Shown in pieces: positions 14,714-29,898 of a DNA stretch of 64,000 nt (its first letter is position 1; each line of letters begins with the position of its first letter). The translations under genes were made by a program, and so were the position numbers. Below the pieces are notes generated by a model. The model saw only the letters and a program-made list of their open reading frames with translations. It searched no databases and had not been told where the DNA came from. The stretch spans positions 1,483,205-1,547,204 of the forward strand of contig CP098402.1 of the NCBI GenBank assembly GCA_025916675.1, in the 5' to 3' direction. The stretch comes from Phycisphaera sp. GTDB lineage: Bacteria > Planctomycetota > Phycisphaerae > Phycisphaerales > UBA1924.

Positions 14714-15532
14714 CTACTCGCAGCCCGAATCGAAGGCATTCTGGAACGCCAGCAAGTCGAAGATCGTGAACTCGCCATCACCGTCGAAATCGGCACGATC
14801 GTCACCCGCGTTGAAGAGGTTCTGGAAGGCGAGGAAGTCGAAGATCGTGAGCGAGCCGTCGCCGTCCAAGTCGGCTTGGCAGTGCGGGGGTTGGAACTGG
14901 AGCGACACGTCGTGGCTCGCCCGATCGCTCAGGCTCTCGTCGGCTTCGAACGAAACCTGATAGTCGCCGAAGGACTCGAACGTATAACGACCGGGTCCCA
15001 GGTCGATGAGCCATATCCAACTCGGCAGACCGGGCTCGGGCGCGCCGCTCACGATCACGCCATCGGGACCTGTGAGCATGCCCGGCTCGTACGCCATGAG
15101 CCCGATGTCGTCGAACAGGTTTGGCTGCACGTTCAGGTGGAGTAGAGCGGGTCGATCGAGATCGAATACCACGTGGTGCCGCCACGACCCGACGGCCACG
15201 CGGGTGCGTGTCCCGAATGCGGGTTCCTCGATCTGGAAGAAGAGCTCCGCGTCGAGGCGGAGGACCGTCGAGCCCGCGCCGCGGCCCGAGCAGTTCGCTG
15301 TGCTCAGCACACGCGGCTCGCCCAGCCTGCCGCCCACGTCGGCTTCGGCTTCGGCGCTGGGAAATGGCAACTGGTCGTCGAAGTCGGACTCGAACGCAAT
15401 GAGCGGGTCGAAGGGCTTCTGGACCGCGGCCCTCGAAGACGCCTCGACCTCCATCGAGATTACATCCGGTAACACCTGGGCATGGCACGCCGACGCGGCG
15501 AAGCCACACGCAACGATGATTGATGCACGCAT
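14714..15532 (-). CDS. Secreted protein with C-terminal GC-type dockerin repeats
   Basis: The function of the body is not recognised. A signal peptide (MRASIIVACGFAASACHAQ) is followed by about 190 residues of probable beta structure and then two EF-hand repeats, ADLDGDGSLTIFDFLAFQNLF and ADFDGDGEFTIFDLLAFQNAF, with a Cys just before the first and a terminal GCE. The DxDGDGxxxxxD pattern predicts one calcium per repeat. Two ATG codons are possible; the second (15532) is nine bases from GGGAGG and is chosen over 15538. One of six proteins in the window with this tail. Confidence 0.82.
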   Translation of the reverse strand: MRASIIVACGFAASACHAQVLPDVISMEVEASSRAAVQKPFDPLIAFESDFDDQLPFPSAEAEADVGGRLGEPRVLSTANCSGRGAGSTVLRLDAELFFQIEEPAFGTRTRVAVGSWRHHVVFDLDRPALLHLNVQPNLFDDIGLMAYEPGMLTGPDGVIVSGAPEPGLPSWIWLIDLGPGRYTFESFGDYQVSFEADESLSDRASHDVSLQFQPPHCQADLDGDGSLTIFDFLAFQNLFNAGDDRADFDGDGEFTIFDLLAFQNAFDSGCE

Positions 15533-17897: not shown

Positions 17898-18129
17898 TTA
17901 CTTCTTCGTCGCCCACTTGATCAAAACATCCGCAACCTCCGGCCGGCTGAACTCCTTCGGCGGGCGCTCGCCGTTGGCCAGCATGTCGCGGACCTTGGTG
18001 CCGCTGAGGAAGACCTGGTCGCCCTCGATCTTGGGGAACGTCTTGCCGCTGACCATGCCCTGGGCCTTGTGGCTCCACGCGGCGTGCTCGAACTTCAGCG
18101 GGGTGATCTTCAGGTCGCCCTCGGCGCCG
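17898..18129 (-). pseudogene. Truncated second copy of the sat 3' end
   Basis: This minus-strand stretch encodes the last ~74 residues of sulfate adenylyltransferase, starting GAEGDLKITPLK and ending VLIKWATKK before TAA. The intact gene at 20759-21961 ends VLIKWATS. The core of sat, including the ATP-binding motifs, is missing, so it cannot be an active enzyme. Over the shared 224 bases (17906-18129 versus 20764-20987) there are seven differences and no gaps; all are synonymous. The frame stays open a further ~65 codons upstream through unrelated sequence, so a hybrid peptide could be made, but no convincing start is seen. Confidence 0.88.
17906..18129. repeat. Left copy of 224-bp direct repeat (sat 3' end)
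   Basis: Matches 20764-20987 in the same orientation with 217 of 224 bases identical. The two copies bracket blh and the rhodopsin gene. Confidence 0.93.
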
Positions 18130-18332
18130 TGATGGTCTTCATCGAGCTCCAAGAGAGGCACGAGCTCGGGCAACAACAGCAGCCGCCAAAGACCCTTACG
18201 CTCAGCAGTCCCGAAGTCCGGTATACGCCCATACGCGAAACCAAACCCGATGGCCGACAAGGACCCATCGAACAGCAGCTCGAGGATGGAGACACCCTGC
18301 TCACGCCAACGCCCGGCGGATAGCTGTCGCGA
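18130..18332 (-). other. Junction sequence between blh and the sat fragment
   Basis: About 200 bases follow the blh stop. On the minus strand they are open in the frame of the sat fragment, reading through SILELLFDGSLSAIGFGF and LPELVPLLELDEDHH into the sat part. I recognise no family. Homology to the intact sat gene stops abruptly at 18129, apart from a shared CTTCATC seven bases further on. It may be a remnant of a donor gene or simply filler. Confidence 0.4.
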
Positions 18333-19403
18333 TCATGCGTTCGAGTAGGTCGCGGCCCGTTCGCGTCCACGCGTCCCAAACCACAGCAGATGGTGAGGCA
18401 GCGTCGCGAACACGCAGAACAGGATGAACGACACCGCCAGTGCGGGCACCCAGCCCAGCTCGCCGAAGGGCACCGCCAGCGCCACGATGATCACGATCGA
18501 CGGCAGCAGCAGCGGTACCGACAGCCGGTGAGCTCGGATCACAGCGCGGACGGGGCCGTCGCCACGATCGCCAACACGCAGGCAGTGCAGCATCGCGTGC
18601 ACGCACATGAAGTAGACGCCGATGGCAAGCAACGGCGGCAGCACGGCCGACGCGAGCAGCGCCACGGCAGGGATGACCACCGACTCAACCGCGGCCCCAT
18701 GCGCACCGCGCTGCCAGAGCCGAACCGCGGCCGGCACGATCACACCCAGCCCCGCGATCACCAGCGCCCCGCCGGCGACCGACATCGCCTGCGCCTGCAG
18801 CGACGCATCGGCCCCGAGCACCGCCGCCATCTCAACGAACGGGGCCCAGCTTGCCACGGGCTGGAACAGGAACGGCGCCGCGATCACCACCGCGCCGTGG
18901 GCGTACCCGGGCAGACGATCCAGCAGCGTTGGAGTGGTGCCGCTCCCGATCGCCCCGCGCGTGTGCACGCTGTCGGAGCGGCCAAAGTGCACCATAGTCA
19001 GCAGCAGGAAGGCCACCAGCGTGAACGCCGGTGCCGCAAAGAACGCCATCGTGCTCAAGAGCATGACGGCCGTGTACAGCAAGAACCGCATGAGCGTCCC
19101 GCGGAAGGAGCCCGACCGACGGGCCAGTTCCGCGAGGTCGTAGGCGCCATGCGGCATGCCGACGACGAAGAGTGCGACGACCCAGATCCACGCACCGGGC
19201 AGCGCGCTCCCCGCCACGCTACCCGGGGTGGATACGGATGTCGACAGACCACCGCTCGCGACCGCGCCCTGCACCACCCACAGCGTGAGCGCACACGACG
19301 CATACAGAAGAACACCCCGACCCAGCGACGCGTCCGACAGGCGCAGCGAGGGGGACGCTGCCGCCGGGGTGTGGACACGTGGCTGGGTCAGGGCTTGGAT
19401 CAC
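18333..19403 (-). CDS. blh: Brp/Blh-family beta-carotene 15,15'-dioxygenase
   Basis: Blh cleaves beta-carotene into two molecules of retinal in the membrane and is the usual partner gene of bacterial rhodopsins. The 356-residue product is polytopic, with eight or so hydrophobic helices, and has the family's iron-binding His motifs: GMPHGAYDL (H85), MVHFGRSD (H139), CVHAMLH (H269, H273) and TLPHHLLW (H337/H338). The GTG at 19403 is preceded by AAGG at eight bases. It lies 70 bases downstream of the rhodopsin gene on the same strand, so one transcript is likely. No carotenoid biosynthesis gene is in the window, so beta-carotene must come from elsewhere. Confidence 0.93.
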   Translation of the reverse strand: MIQALTQPRVHTPAAASPSLRLSDASLGRGVLLYASCALTLWVVQGAVASGGLSTSVSTPGSVAGSALPGAWIWVVALFVVGMPHGAYDLAELARRSGSFRGTLMRFLLYTAVMLLSTMAFFAAPAFTLVAFLLLTMVHFGRSDSVHTRGAIGSGTTPTLLDRLPGYAHGAVVIAAPFLFQPVASWAPFVEMAAVLGADASLQAQAMSVAGGALVIAGLGVIVPAAVRLWQRGAHGAAVESVVIPAVALLASAVLPPLLAIGVYFMCVHAMLHCLRVGDRGDGPVRAVIRAHRLSVPLLLPSIVIIVALAVPFGELGWVPALAVSFILFCVFATLPHHLLWFGTRGRERAATYSNA

Positions 19404-19473: not shown

Positions 19474-20268
19474 TCACGCACCGTGATCATCCGACTCGGC
19501 AAGGACCTTCACGCCCTGGTAGCACACCAGGCCGAAGAAGACCTTGTTGATCACGTCCGCGACGTTGTAGCAGATCTCGCGGATCGACTCGCCCTGTGGG
19601 CCCATCAGGGCCATCAGGAAGCCGACGGGGTAGATGGTCCAGCCGACGAGGATGAACAGCCGCAGGATCTTCAGCGACTTCTGGATGCTCGGCGGCGAGT
19701 TTGCCATCTCACCGGACACCTTGGTGAACAGCACGAAGACGATGTACAGCCACGCAGCGCACGAGATGAGGTAGTTGATCCACCACGCACCGCTGCCAGT
19801 CGCCGACTCCTCGGCGATCCAGGCGAAGACGAGCATGACGATGCTAGCGCCAACCAGCGTCGCGAACAGATTGCCGCCGCGGCCCTTGAGCCTGAGCAAC
19901 AGCGGGATCTCCAGCACGAGCAGGGGTACGGTGATCAACCAGTCGATGTAGCGGTAGGCCGTGGGGAACTTGCCGATCTCAGCGCCCTCGATCCGCGTGC
20001 CGTCGGCGTCAAACAATAAGGCAACCTGCTCGATATAGATGCCCGACATGCGGAAGTAGTGGAAGCAGGCCACCGCACAGATGATGCCCGCAACAATCAT
20101 GACAGAGCGGTATGCCTTGGGCACGCTGCCGGCCATGAGCCAGAAGTACGCGGTACCGGCACCCATGGCGACGGTGCCGATCCAGAACAGATACATCGTG
20201 ATGCCCTCGACCGACAGCCCCGCATTCAGGGCCATCGATGTCTCGGACGCGGCCAACATCGTGTGCAT
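19474..20268 (-). CDS. Proton-pumping microbial rhodopsin (proteorhodopsin-like, green-tuned)
   Basis: A 264-residue seven-helix retinal protein predicted to export protons with light. Helix C reads RYIDWLITVPLLVLE, giving the DTE triad D109, T113 and E120 (Schiff-base counterion, Thr, proton donor). L117 occupies the proteorhodopsin spectral-switch position (Leu means green-absorbing). H70 in ACFHYFRM corresponds to the His that pairs with the counterion. K242 in DVINKVFFGL binds retinal. The B-C connection is about 17 residues longer than in the classic marine proteorhodopsin. By alignment on helix E, the site that is Gly in carotenoid-binding xanthorhodopsins is Tyr166 here, so an antenna carotenoid is not predicted. 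The ATG at 20268 follows GGGAG by seven bases; the open frame upstream is not used. Confidence 0.95.
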   Translation of the reverse strand: MHTMLAASETSMALNAGLSVEGITMYLFWIGTVAMGAGTAYFWLMAGSVPKAYRSVMIVAGIICAVACFHYFRMSGIYIEQVALLFDADGTRIEGAEIGKFPTAYRYIDWLITVPLLVLEIPLLLRLKGRGGNLFATLVGASIVMLVFAWIAEESATGSGAWWINYLISCAAWLYIVFVLFTKVSGEMANSPPSIQKSLKILRLFILVGWTIYPVGFLMALMGPQGESIREICYNVADVINKVFFGLVCYQGVKVLAESDDHGA

Positions 20269-20758: not shown

Positions 20759-21961
20759 TCAGCTCGTCGCCCACTTGATCAGCACATCCGCAACCTCGGG
20801 CCGGCTGAACTCCTTCGGCGGACGCTCGCCATTGGCCAGCATGTCGCGGACCTTGGTGCCGCTGAGGAAGACCTGGTCGCCCTCGATCTTGGGGAAGGTC
20901 TTGCCGCTGACCATGCCCTGGGCCTTGTGGCTCCACGCGGCGTGCTCGAACTTCAGCGGCGTGATCTTCAGGTCGCCCTCGGCGCCGGTCGTGACTTCAT
21001 CCACCTTGGTCTGCGCGTCGTAGGTGCCGTAGTAGCTGCCCACGCCCGCGTGATCGCGACCAACGATGAAGTGCGAGCAGCCGTAGTTCTGGCGGACGAT
21101 GGCGTGCAGGATGGCCTCACGCGGGCCGGCGTACCGCATCGCGGCGGGCATTACCGTGATCATCGTGCGGTCCTTGTTGAAGTACTCGTCAACCAAGACC
21201 TCGTAGCAGTCCATGCGCACGTCGGCGGGGATGTCGCCGGGCTTGGTCTCGCCCACCAGCGGGTGGATGAGCAGGCCGTCGGTGATCTCCTGGGCGCACT
21301 TGCACAGGTACTCGTGGGCGCGGTGGATGGGGTTACGCGTCTGGAAGGCGCTAACGGTGGTCCAGCCCTTCTTCTCGAACGCCTCACGCGTCTGGGCGGG
21401 CGTCAGCCGCTTGTCCAGGAACGCCTCGGGACCATCGGGATCGACGCAAGCGGTCACGACCTCGATCGGGCCGGCCAGGCAGGTGTCGCCCTCGGCCTTC
21501 ACGGCCTCAGCGCCGGGGTGCTTGCCGTCGTCGTCGCTGGGGCTGTTGAAGAAGATGGTCGATTCGGCCTCGCGGTCGTGCGGGAAGACCTCCTCGACAG
21601 TCATCACGGCTTGGAGCGTGCCGTTGGGGGCGTGCAGCGCAACGCGCTCGCCCTCCTTGGGAGCCTTCGTGGCGTCAACGCTCAGCGTGATGGGGATGGG
21701 CCAGCGGCTGCCATTGCTCAGGCGCATGTCCTCGATGACGCCCTTGACGTCGGCCGAGCCCATGAAGCCGTCCAGCGGGCTGAACGCGCCCATGCCGATC
21801 ATCTCGACGTCGCACGACTGCTTCATCGAGAGGTCGACGCGGGTGAGCCCCGCGGCCTCCTTGATCAACTCGTCCTTCCGGGCTCCGGTGGCCACCTGGT
21901 CGACCAAGGTACCGCCGTGGGCCTCGATCAGGGACTTCTTTTGGGTCATCGTCGCGGGCAT
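20759..21961 (-). CDS. sat: Sulfate adenylyltransferase (ATP sulfurylase)
   Basis: Sat makes adenosine 5'-phosphosulfate (APS) from ATP and sulfate, the first step of sulfate activation. The 400-residue single-chain form shows MIGMGAFSPLDGFM (about 54-67), the ATP-binding QTRNPIHRAHEYL (207-219) and GRDHAGVG (301-308), and ends with SGTKVRDMLANGERPPKEF, the usual carboxyl region. AGGAGG lies five bases before the ATG at 21961. The cysC kinase that acts on its product is 1.4 kb away on the other strand. The 3' end is duplicated at 17898-18129. Confidence 0.96.
   Translation of the reverse strand: MPATMTQKKSLIEAHGGTLVDQVATGARKDELIKEAAGLTRVDLSMKQSCDVEMIGMGAFSPLDGFMGSADVKGVIEDMRLSNGSRWPIPITLSVDATKAPKEGERVALHAPNGTLQAVMTVEEVFPHDREAESTIFFNSPSDDDGKHPGAEAVKAEGDTCLAGPIEVVTACVDPDGPEAFLDKRLTPAQTREAFEKKGWTTVSAFQTRNPIHRAHEYLCKCAQEITDGLLIHPLVGETKPGDIPADVRMDCYEVLVDEYFNKDRTMITVMPAAMRYAGPREAILHAIVRQNYGCSHFIVGRDHAGVGSYYGTYDAQTKVDEVTTGAEGDLKITPLKFEHAAWSHKAQGMVSGKTFPKIEGDQVFLSGTKVRDMLANGERPPKEFSRPEVADVLIKWATS
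20764..20987. repeat. Right copy of 224-bp direct repeat (inside sat)
   Basis: This is codons ~326-399 of the intact sat gene; it matches 17906-18129 with seven silent differences. The two copies are 2.86 kb apart. Confidence 0.93.
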
Positions 21962-25734: not shown

Positions 25735-27051
25735 TCAGCAGCCGGCGATGAACAGGTTCTGGAACTCGAGGAAGTCGAAGATGTCCAGCGCCCCGTCGCC
25801 CGTCAGGTCGGCCGACATGTCGCCCGAGCCGAACGCGGTCTGGAACGCCAGGAAGTCGAACAGCGTCAACTCACCATCGCCGTCGAAGTCGGCCACGCAG
25901 GATGGTTCAAGACCCAACGCACCCTCGGCGTTCACGAGGCCGTGCCCAAAATCGCTGTCCCACCCGGGGCTACCCAGGTCGATCGCGGTATCGATCATCC
26001 GCTGGCGAACCTCGTCGTTGATGCGGCCGTTGCCGTTGGCGTCCTCGATGCCCGCCCCGATGATGAGGGCCGCCACGCCCACGGCGTGGGGTGTAGCCAT
26101 CGAGGTCCCATCGAAAAAGTCGTAGCTCGTGTCCGAACCCGAAACCGTCGAGTACACACCCACGCCAGGCCCGACGAGCTCGAGTGCCGAGCCGCCCTGC
26201 GAGAAGCTCGCCCGGCGATCCCGATCATCGATGGCACCGACCGCGATCACGTTGTCGTACCGAGCCGGAACACCGATGGGGGCCCCACCGCCGTTGCCCG
26301 AAGCCGCAAAGTGGATGATACCGGCATCCCAGGTGTTGTCGTAGGCCTGCTGGAGCAGCGATGAATCACCAACCGAAAAGCTGCTGTTGGTCACCTGGAT
26401 GCCGTTATCGAGGGCCCACTGCAAGGCGTTGATGACACCCGAAGACGACGGGAAGAACGTGCCGATCTTCAGCATGTACAGATCGGCCTCAGGCGCGACA
26501 CCGATGATGTCCGAGCCATTGGCGACCGCCGCGACGGTACCGCACACGTGCGTGCCGTGACTGAACGGATCGCTGAAGTCCGCACTCATCGTCTCGAAAT
26601 CAAAGCCGAACACAAAGTTGTCGGCGATGTCCTCGTGCGTGTGGCGCAATCCCGAGTCCATCACGCCGACGGCCACCCCCGTGCCAGTCTGGCCTGCGGA
26701 GTGTGTGGTCTGGCCACCAATGCGCACGACACCCCACACGTCGTCGTACTCATCCGTCCACTCGCCGGTGTGGTTGAGTTGGACACCCACAACGCGCCGG
26801 CTCAGAGCATGCAGGTCCACGTCTGCCCCGAACGGCAGGCTCGCATGCATGCCCGGGGCCACCGTCCATACCTGATGGACAACGCCACCGACCGACTCGA
26901 CCGCAGCCACATCGGCGGGCGTCGGGTTCGAGGCAAACTCGATCAGCACGTCGGCCATCGGGGTCACTGTCTCGTCGGCTTGACCAATCGAGCAGACCAT
27001 ACCACAGACCGACAACACCGCCGCGGTAGCGGCTAGGGGGGTGCGATTCAT
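25735..27051 (-). CDS. Secreted subtilisin-like protease with GC-type dockerin tail
   Basis: A 438-residue exported serine protease of family S8. The signal peptide is followed by a propeptide-like region. The catalytic triad is in GVMDSGL (Asp), SHGTHVCGTVA (His) and DGTSMATPHAVG (Ser), with the oxyanion Asn in AASGNGGG. The carboxyl end has two EF-hand repeats beginning ADFDGDGELTLFDF and ADLTGDGALDIFDF, a Cys before the first and a terminal Gly-Cys. The ATG at 27051 is seven bases after AGGAG; an upstream TTG (27057) is rejected. The tail probably decides localisation or anchoring. Confidence 0.93.
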   Translation of the reverse strand: MNRTPLAATAAVLSVCGMVCSIGQADETVTPMADVLIEFASNPTPADVAAVESVGGVVHQVWTVAPGMHASLPFGADVDLHALSRRVVGVQLNHTGEWTDEYDDVWGVVRIGGQTTHSAGQTGTGVAVGVMDSGLRHTHEDIADNFVFGFDFETMSADFSDPFSHGTHVCGTVAAVANGSDIIGVAPEADLYMLKIGTFFPSSSGVINALQWALDNGIQVTNSSFSVGDSSLLQQAYDNTWDAGIIHFAASGNGGGAPIGVPARYDNVIAVGAIDDRDRRASFSQGGSALELVGPGVGVYSTVSGSDTSYDFFDGTSMATPHAVGVAALIIGAGIEDANGNGRINDEVRQRMIDTAIDLGSPGWDSDFGHGLVNAEGALGLEPSCVADFDGDGELTLFDFLAFQTAFGSGDMSADLTGDGALDIFDFLEFQNLFIAGC

Positions 27052-29513: not shown

Positions 29514-29549
29514 ACCCTCTTGTCATGCCAACACCTCGATGATCTGAAG

Positions 29550-29898
29550 TGGAGCCGGGGGGAATCGAACCCCCGTGTCGGAACGGCAGCCATGGCGCCT
29601 CTACGCGTGTAGTCGGCGATTTGGTCTCGGCCTGTGCGCGGGCGCCGACGCCCTCACCTTCGGCCCAGCCACCGGTGAACCTCCTCGCCAACACGCCCGG
29701 AAGCGCCACGCGTTGACCAGCCCGATGTCGTCGTCCCCCATCCCTATCGGGCGTCGAGAGGGGGACGGGCTGTGATTAAGCAGCCAGTGCGTACTGCGGT
29801 TCGGCAGTTGTTGGTTTTGTGTGCCGGTTACGAGGAGAGCACACCTCTCGACGCGCCACACCATGCCTTACACGTCCGATCGAATCCATATCGGCCCC
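29550..29898 (-). ncRNA. ssrA: Transfer-messenger RNA
   Basis: tmRNA rescues stalled ribosomes and tags the broken protein for proteolysis. The minus strand begins GGGGCCGATATGGATTCGA and ends CACGGGGGTTCGATTCCCCC then CGGCTCCA. The first seven bases pair with the last (GGGGCCG with CGGCTCC, one G-U), and the T-arm/loop GGGGGTTCGATTCCCCC is intact. A tag frame ends ...ACTGCCGAACCGCAG TACGCACTGGCTGCTTAA, reading TTAEPQYALAA before the stop at about 29774. The 3' half has the ACTACACGCGTAGA element typical of tmRNA. CCA is not encoded. Length is 349 bases. Confidence 0.95.

What the first reader, a model, noticed from the sequence alone, without database searches (positions are those of the whole stretch)
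19474..20268. Planctomycete-like proton pump with long B-C loop, green tuning and no antenna site
The DTE triad, Leu at the spectral switch, the conserved His and the retinal Lys make it a green-light proton pump. The stretch between the helix B His (H70) and the helix C Asp (D109) is 39 residues against 22 in the classic marine proteorhodopsin, with an acidic DADGTRIEGAE loop. The site that must be Gly for xanthorhodopsin-type carotenoid antennae is Tyr166 in my alignment. This may define a separate rhodopsin clade.
Basis: partly seen in the sequence, partly recalled or inferred. Interest (0 to 1): 0.62.

Follow-up and report, generated by a model that had tools for sequence, protein, structure and literature searches.

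The report
PVC-clade green proton-pump rhodopsin, already described
This planctomycete gene encodes a green-light-driven proton pump of a known lineage shared by planctomycetes and verrucomicrobia; its long outer loop and missing antenna pocket are real but typical of that lineage, and it sits with its retinal-making enzyme in a small inserted cassette.

Summary
The minus strand 19474-20268 encodes a 264-aa rhodopsin with D109/T113/E120, L117, H70 and K242, and a His-Asp spacing of 39. Tyr166 lies at the xanthorhodopsin (XR) Gly156 column. These are clade traits: 58 related rows, nearly all Planctomycetota or Verrucomicrobiota. The main branch has spacing 39-41, all rows have a bulky residue at the antenna position, and support is 100/99 with loop and donor columns removed. 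It groups with Exiguobacterium rhodopsin (ESR), not with marine proteorhodopsin or XR. PMC5673642 (2017) and PMC6040077 (2018) already described this PVC/Exiguobacterium-like green clade. A spacing of 39 is extreme only against proteorhodopsin (22); XR-type pumps have about 34. The acidic loop is not conserved.

Added here: (1) rho and blh form a conserved pair; (2) here the pair lies between two 243-nt copies (94%) of the sat 3' end, and six congeners lack it there, two of which carry an XR-carotenoid operon beside sat; (3) the complete genome has blh but no recognisable lycopene cyclase, so the retinal source is open; (4) the proton donor switches between Glu and Lys inside the clade.

Best reading: an ordinary outward green proton pump without an antenna.

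The parts
19474..20268 (-). Rhodopsin gene (rho), 264 aa, DTE, Leu at spectral switch, Tyr166 at the antenna position
18333..19403 (-). blh, Brp/Blh-family beta-carotene 15,15'-dioxygenase, directly downstream of rho
   Evidence: Pfam PF15461 E=5e-32; NCBIfam TIGR03753 118.6 bits, above its cut-off; next to rho in nearly all clade loci
19951..20037 (-). Codons of the B-C segment, residues 78-106 (extended end of helix B, short hairpin, FPTAYR)
   Evidence: loop columns; AlphaFold2 helix B to residue 83, bridge 86/92
20764..21006 (-). Right copy of the 243-nt repeat: the 3' end of the intact sat gene
17906..18148 (-). Left copy of the repeat: truncated sat 3' end downstream of blh
   Evidence: 94% identity over 243 nt; single sat in six congeners
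20759..21961 (-). sat, sulfate adenylyltransferase, the gene at whose 3' end the cassette lies
   Evidence: NCBIfam TIGR00339 416 bits
20269..20758 (-). 490-nt spacer between the sat stop and the rho start; holds a terminator-like inverted repeat after sat and presumably the rho promoter (no sigma-70 consensus found)
   Evidence: the promoter is inference

Best explanation
It is a retinal-based, green-light-driven outward proton pump of the PVC (Planctomycetota-Verrucomicrobiota) branch of Exiguobacterium-like rhodopsins. Retinal binds K242. Light moves the Schiff-base proton to D109 (paired with H70), and E120 reprotonates the Schiff base from the cytoplasm, giving net outward H+ transport. 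L117 sets green absorption. Y166 fills the site where XR has Gly156, so no carotenoid antenna is expected. The long B-C segment lengthens helix B beyond the membrane and ends in a short hairpin, probably part of the oligomer or extracellular surface. Its partner blh cleaves a carotenoid to retinal. The two genes arrived together as a cassette inserted at the 3' end of sat. Shown here: sequence, residues, clade, gene pair, repeat and empty sites. Inferred from family knowledge: pumping, colour, absence of antenna, role of the loop, route of insertion.
For: Family assignment. DTE in 54 of 58 clade rows; H70, D109, T113, W110, K242 invariant in the 21-sequence alignment. Tree with loop and donor columns removed: long-loop branch 100/99, with the DTK short-loop trio 99/93, with ESR 97/90, apart from GPR and XR. 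ESR is the best solved relative by sequence (180 bits vs 126 for GPR) and heads the fold list (Z 29.3, 1.4 A over 216 residues; Gloeobacter rhodopsin is tied within 1 Z). Published L/M-105 green assignment for this clade. Published work shows Glu and Lys both work as donor in PR and ESR (PMC8387761). Bulky residue at position 166 in all 58 rows. blh partner conserved. 243-nt repeat around rho-blh and absence of the pair beside sat in congeners.
Against: No measurement of absorption or pumping exists here. No recognisable lycopene cyclase was found in the complete genome, so it is not shown that the cell can make retinal. Bulky residues predict but do not prove absence of an antenna. The AlphaFold2 model has no retinal and only moderate confidence in the loop (about 81-86).
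Confidence: 0.88

Rival explanations
1. The rhodopsin is XR-like: the long B-C loop is the ancestral flipped beta-sheet loop of XR-type pumps, with carotenoid binding lost.
For: Spacing 39 is near XR's 34. Gloeobacter rhodopsin aligns over more of the model (240 residues, Z 29.1) than ESR does (216). An aromatic (Y78) sits at the GR Trp95 position, 8 residues after the helix-B His.
Against: The tree puts the clade with ESR and GPR at 100/99, XR outside. The GR Tyr106 position appears to hold Arg92, so the three-aromatic motif of PMC6677831 looks incomplete. The nearest sisters have a spacing of 21, which favours a secondary gain of the loop.
Confidence: 0.08
2. It is a light sensor or a non-pumping rhodopsin.
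For: One copy in the genome, and no complete beta-carotene pathway recognised.
Against: Full DTE pump triad conserved across the clade; the partner gene is blh, and nothing in the gene list around it suggests a transducer.
Confidence: 0.04
3. The sat 3' repeat is an ordinary local duplication unrelated to the arrival of rho-blh.
For: The two copies are 96.9% identical over 223 nt, closer to each other than to any congener (87-95%), so no foreign donor is visible.
Against: The repeat copies flank the two genes that six congeners lack beside sat, and the nearest relatives of rho are not next to sat.
Confidence: 0.25

Closest known systems
PVC / Exiguobacterium-like rhodopsin clade (Cabello-Yeves 2017, PMC5673642; PMC6040077, 2018; likely also the Planctomycetes rhodopsins of Andrei 2019, PMC6461901)
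   Same: Same host phyla, nearest to ESR, L or M at position 105, predicted green proton pump
   Different: In the passages read, those papers do not discuss the B-C loop, the Glu/Lys donor switch, the rho-blh pairing or the missing lycopene cyclase
Exiguobacterium sibiricum rhodopsin (ESR, 4hyj)
   Same: Nearest solved relative; Tyr at the antenna position; same fold at 1.4 A over 216 residues
   Different: Glu120 instead of the Lys96 donor; His-Asp spacing 39 against 28
Green proteorhodopsin (GPR)
   Same: DTE, Leu at the spectral switch, bulky residue at the antenna site
   Different: Short B-C loop (22); separate clade
Xanthorhodopsin / Gloeobacter rhodopsin / Kin4B8
   Same: DTE and a long B-C segment (34)
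   Different: They have Gly at the carotenoid fenestration; they fall in a different clade

Membership tests
PVC / Exiguobacterium-like rhodopsin clade | Groups with ESR, apart from GPR and XR | tested here: met
   97/90 with ESR, 100/99 for the ESR+GPR side against XR
PVC / Exiguobacterium-like rhodopsin clade | Hosts in Planctomycetota-Verrucomicrobiota | tested here: met
   Nearly all record titles are from these two phyla; a few bins named otherwise (delta proteobacterium, Flavobacteriaceae) carry near-identical copies
PVC / Exiguobacterium-like rhodopsin clade | L or M at the spectral position | tested here: met
   Leu117; 38 Leu and 20 Met in 58 rows
ESR proper | Lys proton donor (DTK) | tested here: not met
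   Glu120; Lys only in L020 (same genome as L023), L073, L074, L079
Xanthorhodopsin | Gly at the carotenoid fenestration | tested here: not met
   Tyr166
Xanthorhodopsin | Falls in the XR clade | tested here: not met
Xanthorhodopsin | Outward beta-sheet B-C loop with three-aromatic motif | tested here: inconclusive
   Model shows only a 1-residue bridge 86/92; Y78 fits, R92 does not; coordinates not inspected
Marine proteorhodopsin (GPR/BPR) | Short B-C loop and place in the GPR clade | tested here: not met
   Spacing 39 vs 22
Light-driven outward proton pump | DTE triad, Schiff-base Lys, second counterion Asp | tested here: met
   D109, T113, E120, K242, D238
Light-driven outward proton pump | Light-induced H+ export | not testable with these tools
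   Needs expression

The most novel reading that the evidence does not exclude
A compact rho-blh phototrophy cassette moves between PVC bacteria and works in cells without a known lycopene cyclase, so retinal must come from an unrecognised cyclase, from an unusual Blh substrate, or from scavenged carotenoid or retinal.
Probability: 0.3. Interest if true: 0.55.

Novelty: new member of a known kind. Interest (0 to 1): 0.3.

Why it matters
It places the protein in a known but, as far as the papers found here show, uncharacterised clade that occurs in lakes and seas. Three concrete questions become testable: what an XR-length B-C loop does on a proteorhodopsin/ESR scaffold; how natural Glu-to-Lys donor switches behave within 74% identity (L020); and where these planctomycetes get retinal. 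A closed genome with single-copy rho and an adjacent blh is a useful reference for the last.

Tried and rejected
Plasmid and phage records: only distant plasmid hits (28-30% identity) and no phage hit, so no mobile vehicle was found. XR carotenoid operon remnants in the window: none; only rho and blh themselves match. Lycopene cyclase: PF18916 none; the PF05834 hit (L100) is nearest to the geranylgeranyl-reductase family; the CrtY query matched only XR-bearing G034 and G485 convincingly; TIGR01790 gave 95-101 bits there and at most 36 bits in G000 and the other genomes with this rhodopsin. A CruA-type cyclase was not tested. Deciding which sat copy is native: stop contexts disagree with nucleotide identities, left open. 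L015's 797-aa frame as a fused rhodopsin: the upstream part reads as low-complexity out-of-frame sequence, rejected by inspection. Sigma-70 promoter scan: none found. The PNAS paper on the C30 route (PMC9907078) is not held.

Full report
OBSERVATION. The minus strand of 19474-20268 reads as a 264-aa protein matching Pfam Bac_rhodopsin at E=9.9e-44. H70, D109, T113, L117, E120 and K242 are present, and D109 is 39 residues after H70; GPR has 22 and ESR 28 in the same alignment. Tyr166 lies in the helix-E column that is Tyr in ESR and Phe in GPR and that corresponds to BR Trp138 / XR Gly156 by ungapped alignment of the helix (the BR residue number is from general knowledge); PMC13093654 describes Gly156 as the residue that opens the carotenoid fenestration. 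The genome (G000, one contig of 3.62 Mb, 99.97% complete) has this one rhodopsin.

CLADE. A scan of one genome per species returned 61 loci, 48-82% identical apart from a distant one at 35%. They come from Planctomycetota and Verrucomicrobiota, fresh water and sea; a few bins carry other names. Of 58 clade rows, 54 are DTE and 4 DTK; spacing is 39 (40 rows), 40 (14), 41 (1) or 21 (3); position 117 is Leu (38) or Met (20); position 166 is Tyr (53), Phe (4) or Trp (1). The three spacing-21 rows (L073, L074, L079) are also DTK; L020, the same genome as L023, is DTK with the long loop at 74% identity to the window protein. In a maximum-likelihood tree made without the loop and donor columns, the long-loop branch has 100/99 support, joins the short-loop DTK trio at 99/93, then ESR and L010 at 97/90, then GPR at 100/99, with XR, GR and Kin4B8 outside. 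At least three changes of donor and three of loop class are needed on that tree. Several deep branches are long, and the tool warned of long-branch joins there.

STRUCTURE. AlphaFold2 on a 21-sequence clade alignment gave mean pLDDT 85.6. Helix B runs from 51 to 83, 13 residues past H70, followed by a loop to 102 with a single bridge at 86/92. The top solved match is ESR (Z 29.3, 1.4 A, 216 residues); Gloeobacter rhodopsin, tied in Z, aligns over more residues (240) at 2.5 A. PMC6677831 classes proteorhodopsins including ESR as lacking the B-C sheet and the three-aromatic motif of XR-type pumps. The PVC clade thus puts an XR-length B-C segment on an ESR-like core. Whether it folds outward as in XR was not settled. 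The loop's acidity is not a clade trait: net charge 0 to -5, window -3.

MECHANISM. The pump reading rests on the DTE triad and on established knowledge of the family. The donor can be Glu or Lys in this part of the family: in PMC8387761 both work when exchanged in PR and ESR. Green tuning follows from Leu at the spectral position, as already argued for this clade.

NEIGHBOURHOOD. blh follows rho, and a blh homologue follows rho in nearly all clade loci that extend far enough. In three loci (L060, L066, L068) a CrtI-family gene stands divergently upstream; it is 51-53% identical to a G000 CrtI-family gene at 2.06 Mb and only 28-30% to the XR-operon CrtI; CrtI genes of the same kind lie near rho in L074 and L079. 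In G000 that gene stands with a second CrtI-family gene, an aldehyde dehydrogenase and a squalene-synthase-like gene. A C30 route through squalene is known in Planctomycetes (PMC12078418); by general knowledge such a route would not give beta-carotene. Searches for lycopene cyclase found a CrtY only in the congeners with an XR operon. The retinal source is therefore unexplained; CruA-type cyclases were not tested.

INSERTION. The last 243 nt of sat (20764-21006) recur at 17906-18148 with 94% identity, enclosing rho and blh. Six congeners have one sat in the conserved order sat-glycosyltransferase-cysC. In G002, G483 and G034 the window's left and right flanks both map beside that single sat without rho-blh. 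Two congeners, G034 and G485, carry an XR-type rhodopsin with crtI, crtB, crtY and blh beside sat. In family member G440 no sat was found in the 19.5 kb around its XR operon, and none was found near the closest relatives of the window rho (L022, L020/L097, L019/L098). The simplest reading is insertion of a rho-blh cassette by recombination at the sat 3' end. The copies are 96.9% identical to each other over 223 nt, so the donor was close or the duplication is recent. Two rhodopsin systems beside sat suggest a favoured site, but two cases are few.

WHAT IS KNOWN. Cabello-Yeves 2017 reported a verrucomicrobial rhodopsin nearest to Exiguobacterium as part of a novel PVC branch with green tuning. 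PMC6040077 added marine members and called the group characteristic of the PVC superphylum. Andrei 2019 reported green rhodopsins in freshwater Planctomycetes, one of them in Phycisphaerae. A 2026 survey noted a branch with a divergent donor position that includes Exiguobacterium (PMC13043013). The window protein is a new member of that known kind. The papers were searched by term rather than read in full, so absence of the loop, donor-switch and cyclase points from them is not proven.

VERDICT. Observation confirmed; interpretation partly supported; novelty low; interest moderate-low, carried mainly by the retinal-supply question and the insertion footprint.

Noticed in passing
17906-18148 and 20764-21006: 243-nt direct repeat of the sat 3' end flanking rho-blh; the left copy is a truncated sat fragment.
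   Followed up: yes
L094:3523-10719 and L093:622-6149: XR-type rhodopsin with crtI, crtB, crtY and blh (plus crtE) beside sat in two congeners. Ungapped helix alignment of the L012 protein puts Phe, not Gly, at the fenestration, but a 2-residue gap would restore Gly; antenna binding is unclear.
   Followed up: partly
L020 / L023: A close relative (74% identity) with Lys instead of Glu as proton donor but the same long loop; single genome, assembly error not excluded.
   Followed up: partly
L015, L018 (G352) and L011 (G116): Planctomycete rhodopsins with non-DTE motifs NTT, NDS and NDQ; NDQ is the sodium-pump signature.
   Followed up: no
L101:2419-7885 (G000 at about 2.06 Mb): Two CrtI-family genes, an aldehyde dehydrogenase and a squalene-synthase-like gene, resembling an acyclic carotenoid cluster.
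   Followed up: partly
14714-14881 and 25738-25899: Segments that match several places in congeners' loci at 68-88% DNA identity, like a repeated gene-start module.
   Followed up: no
29549-29898: tmRNA gene with tag AEPQYALAA.
   Followed up: no
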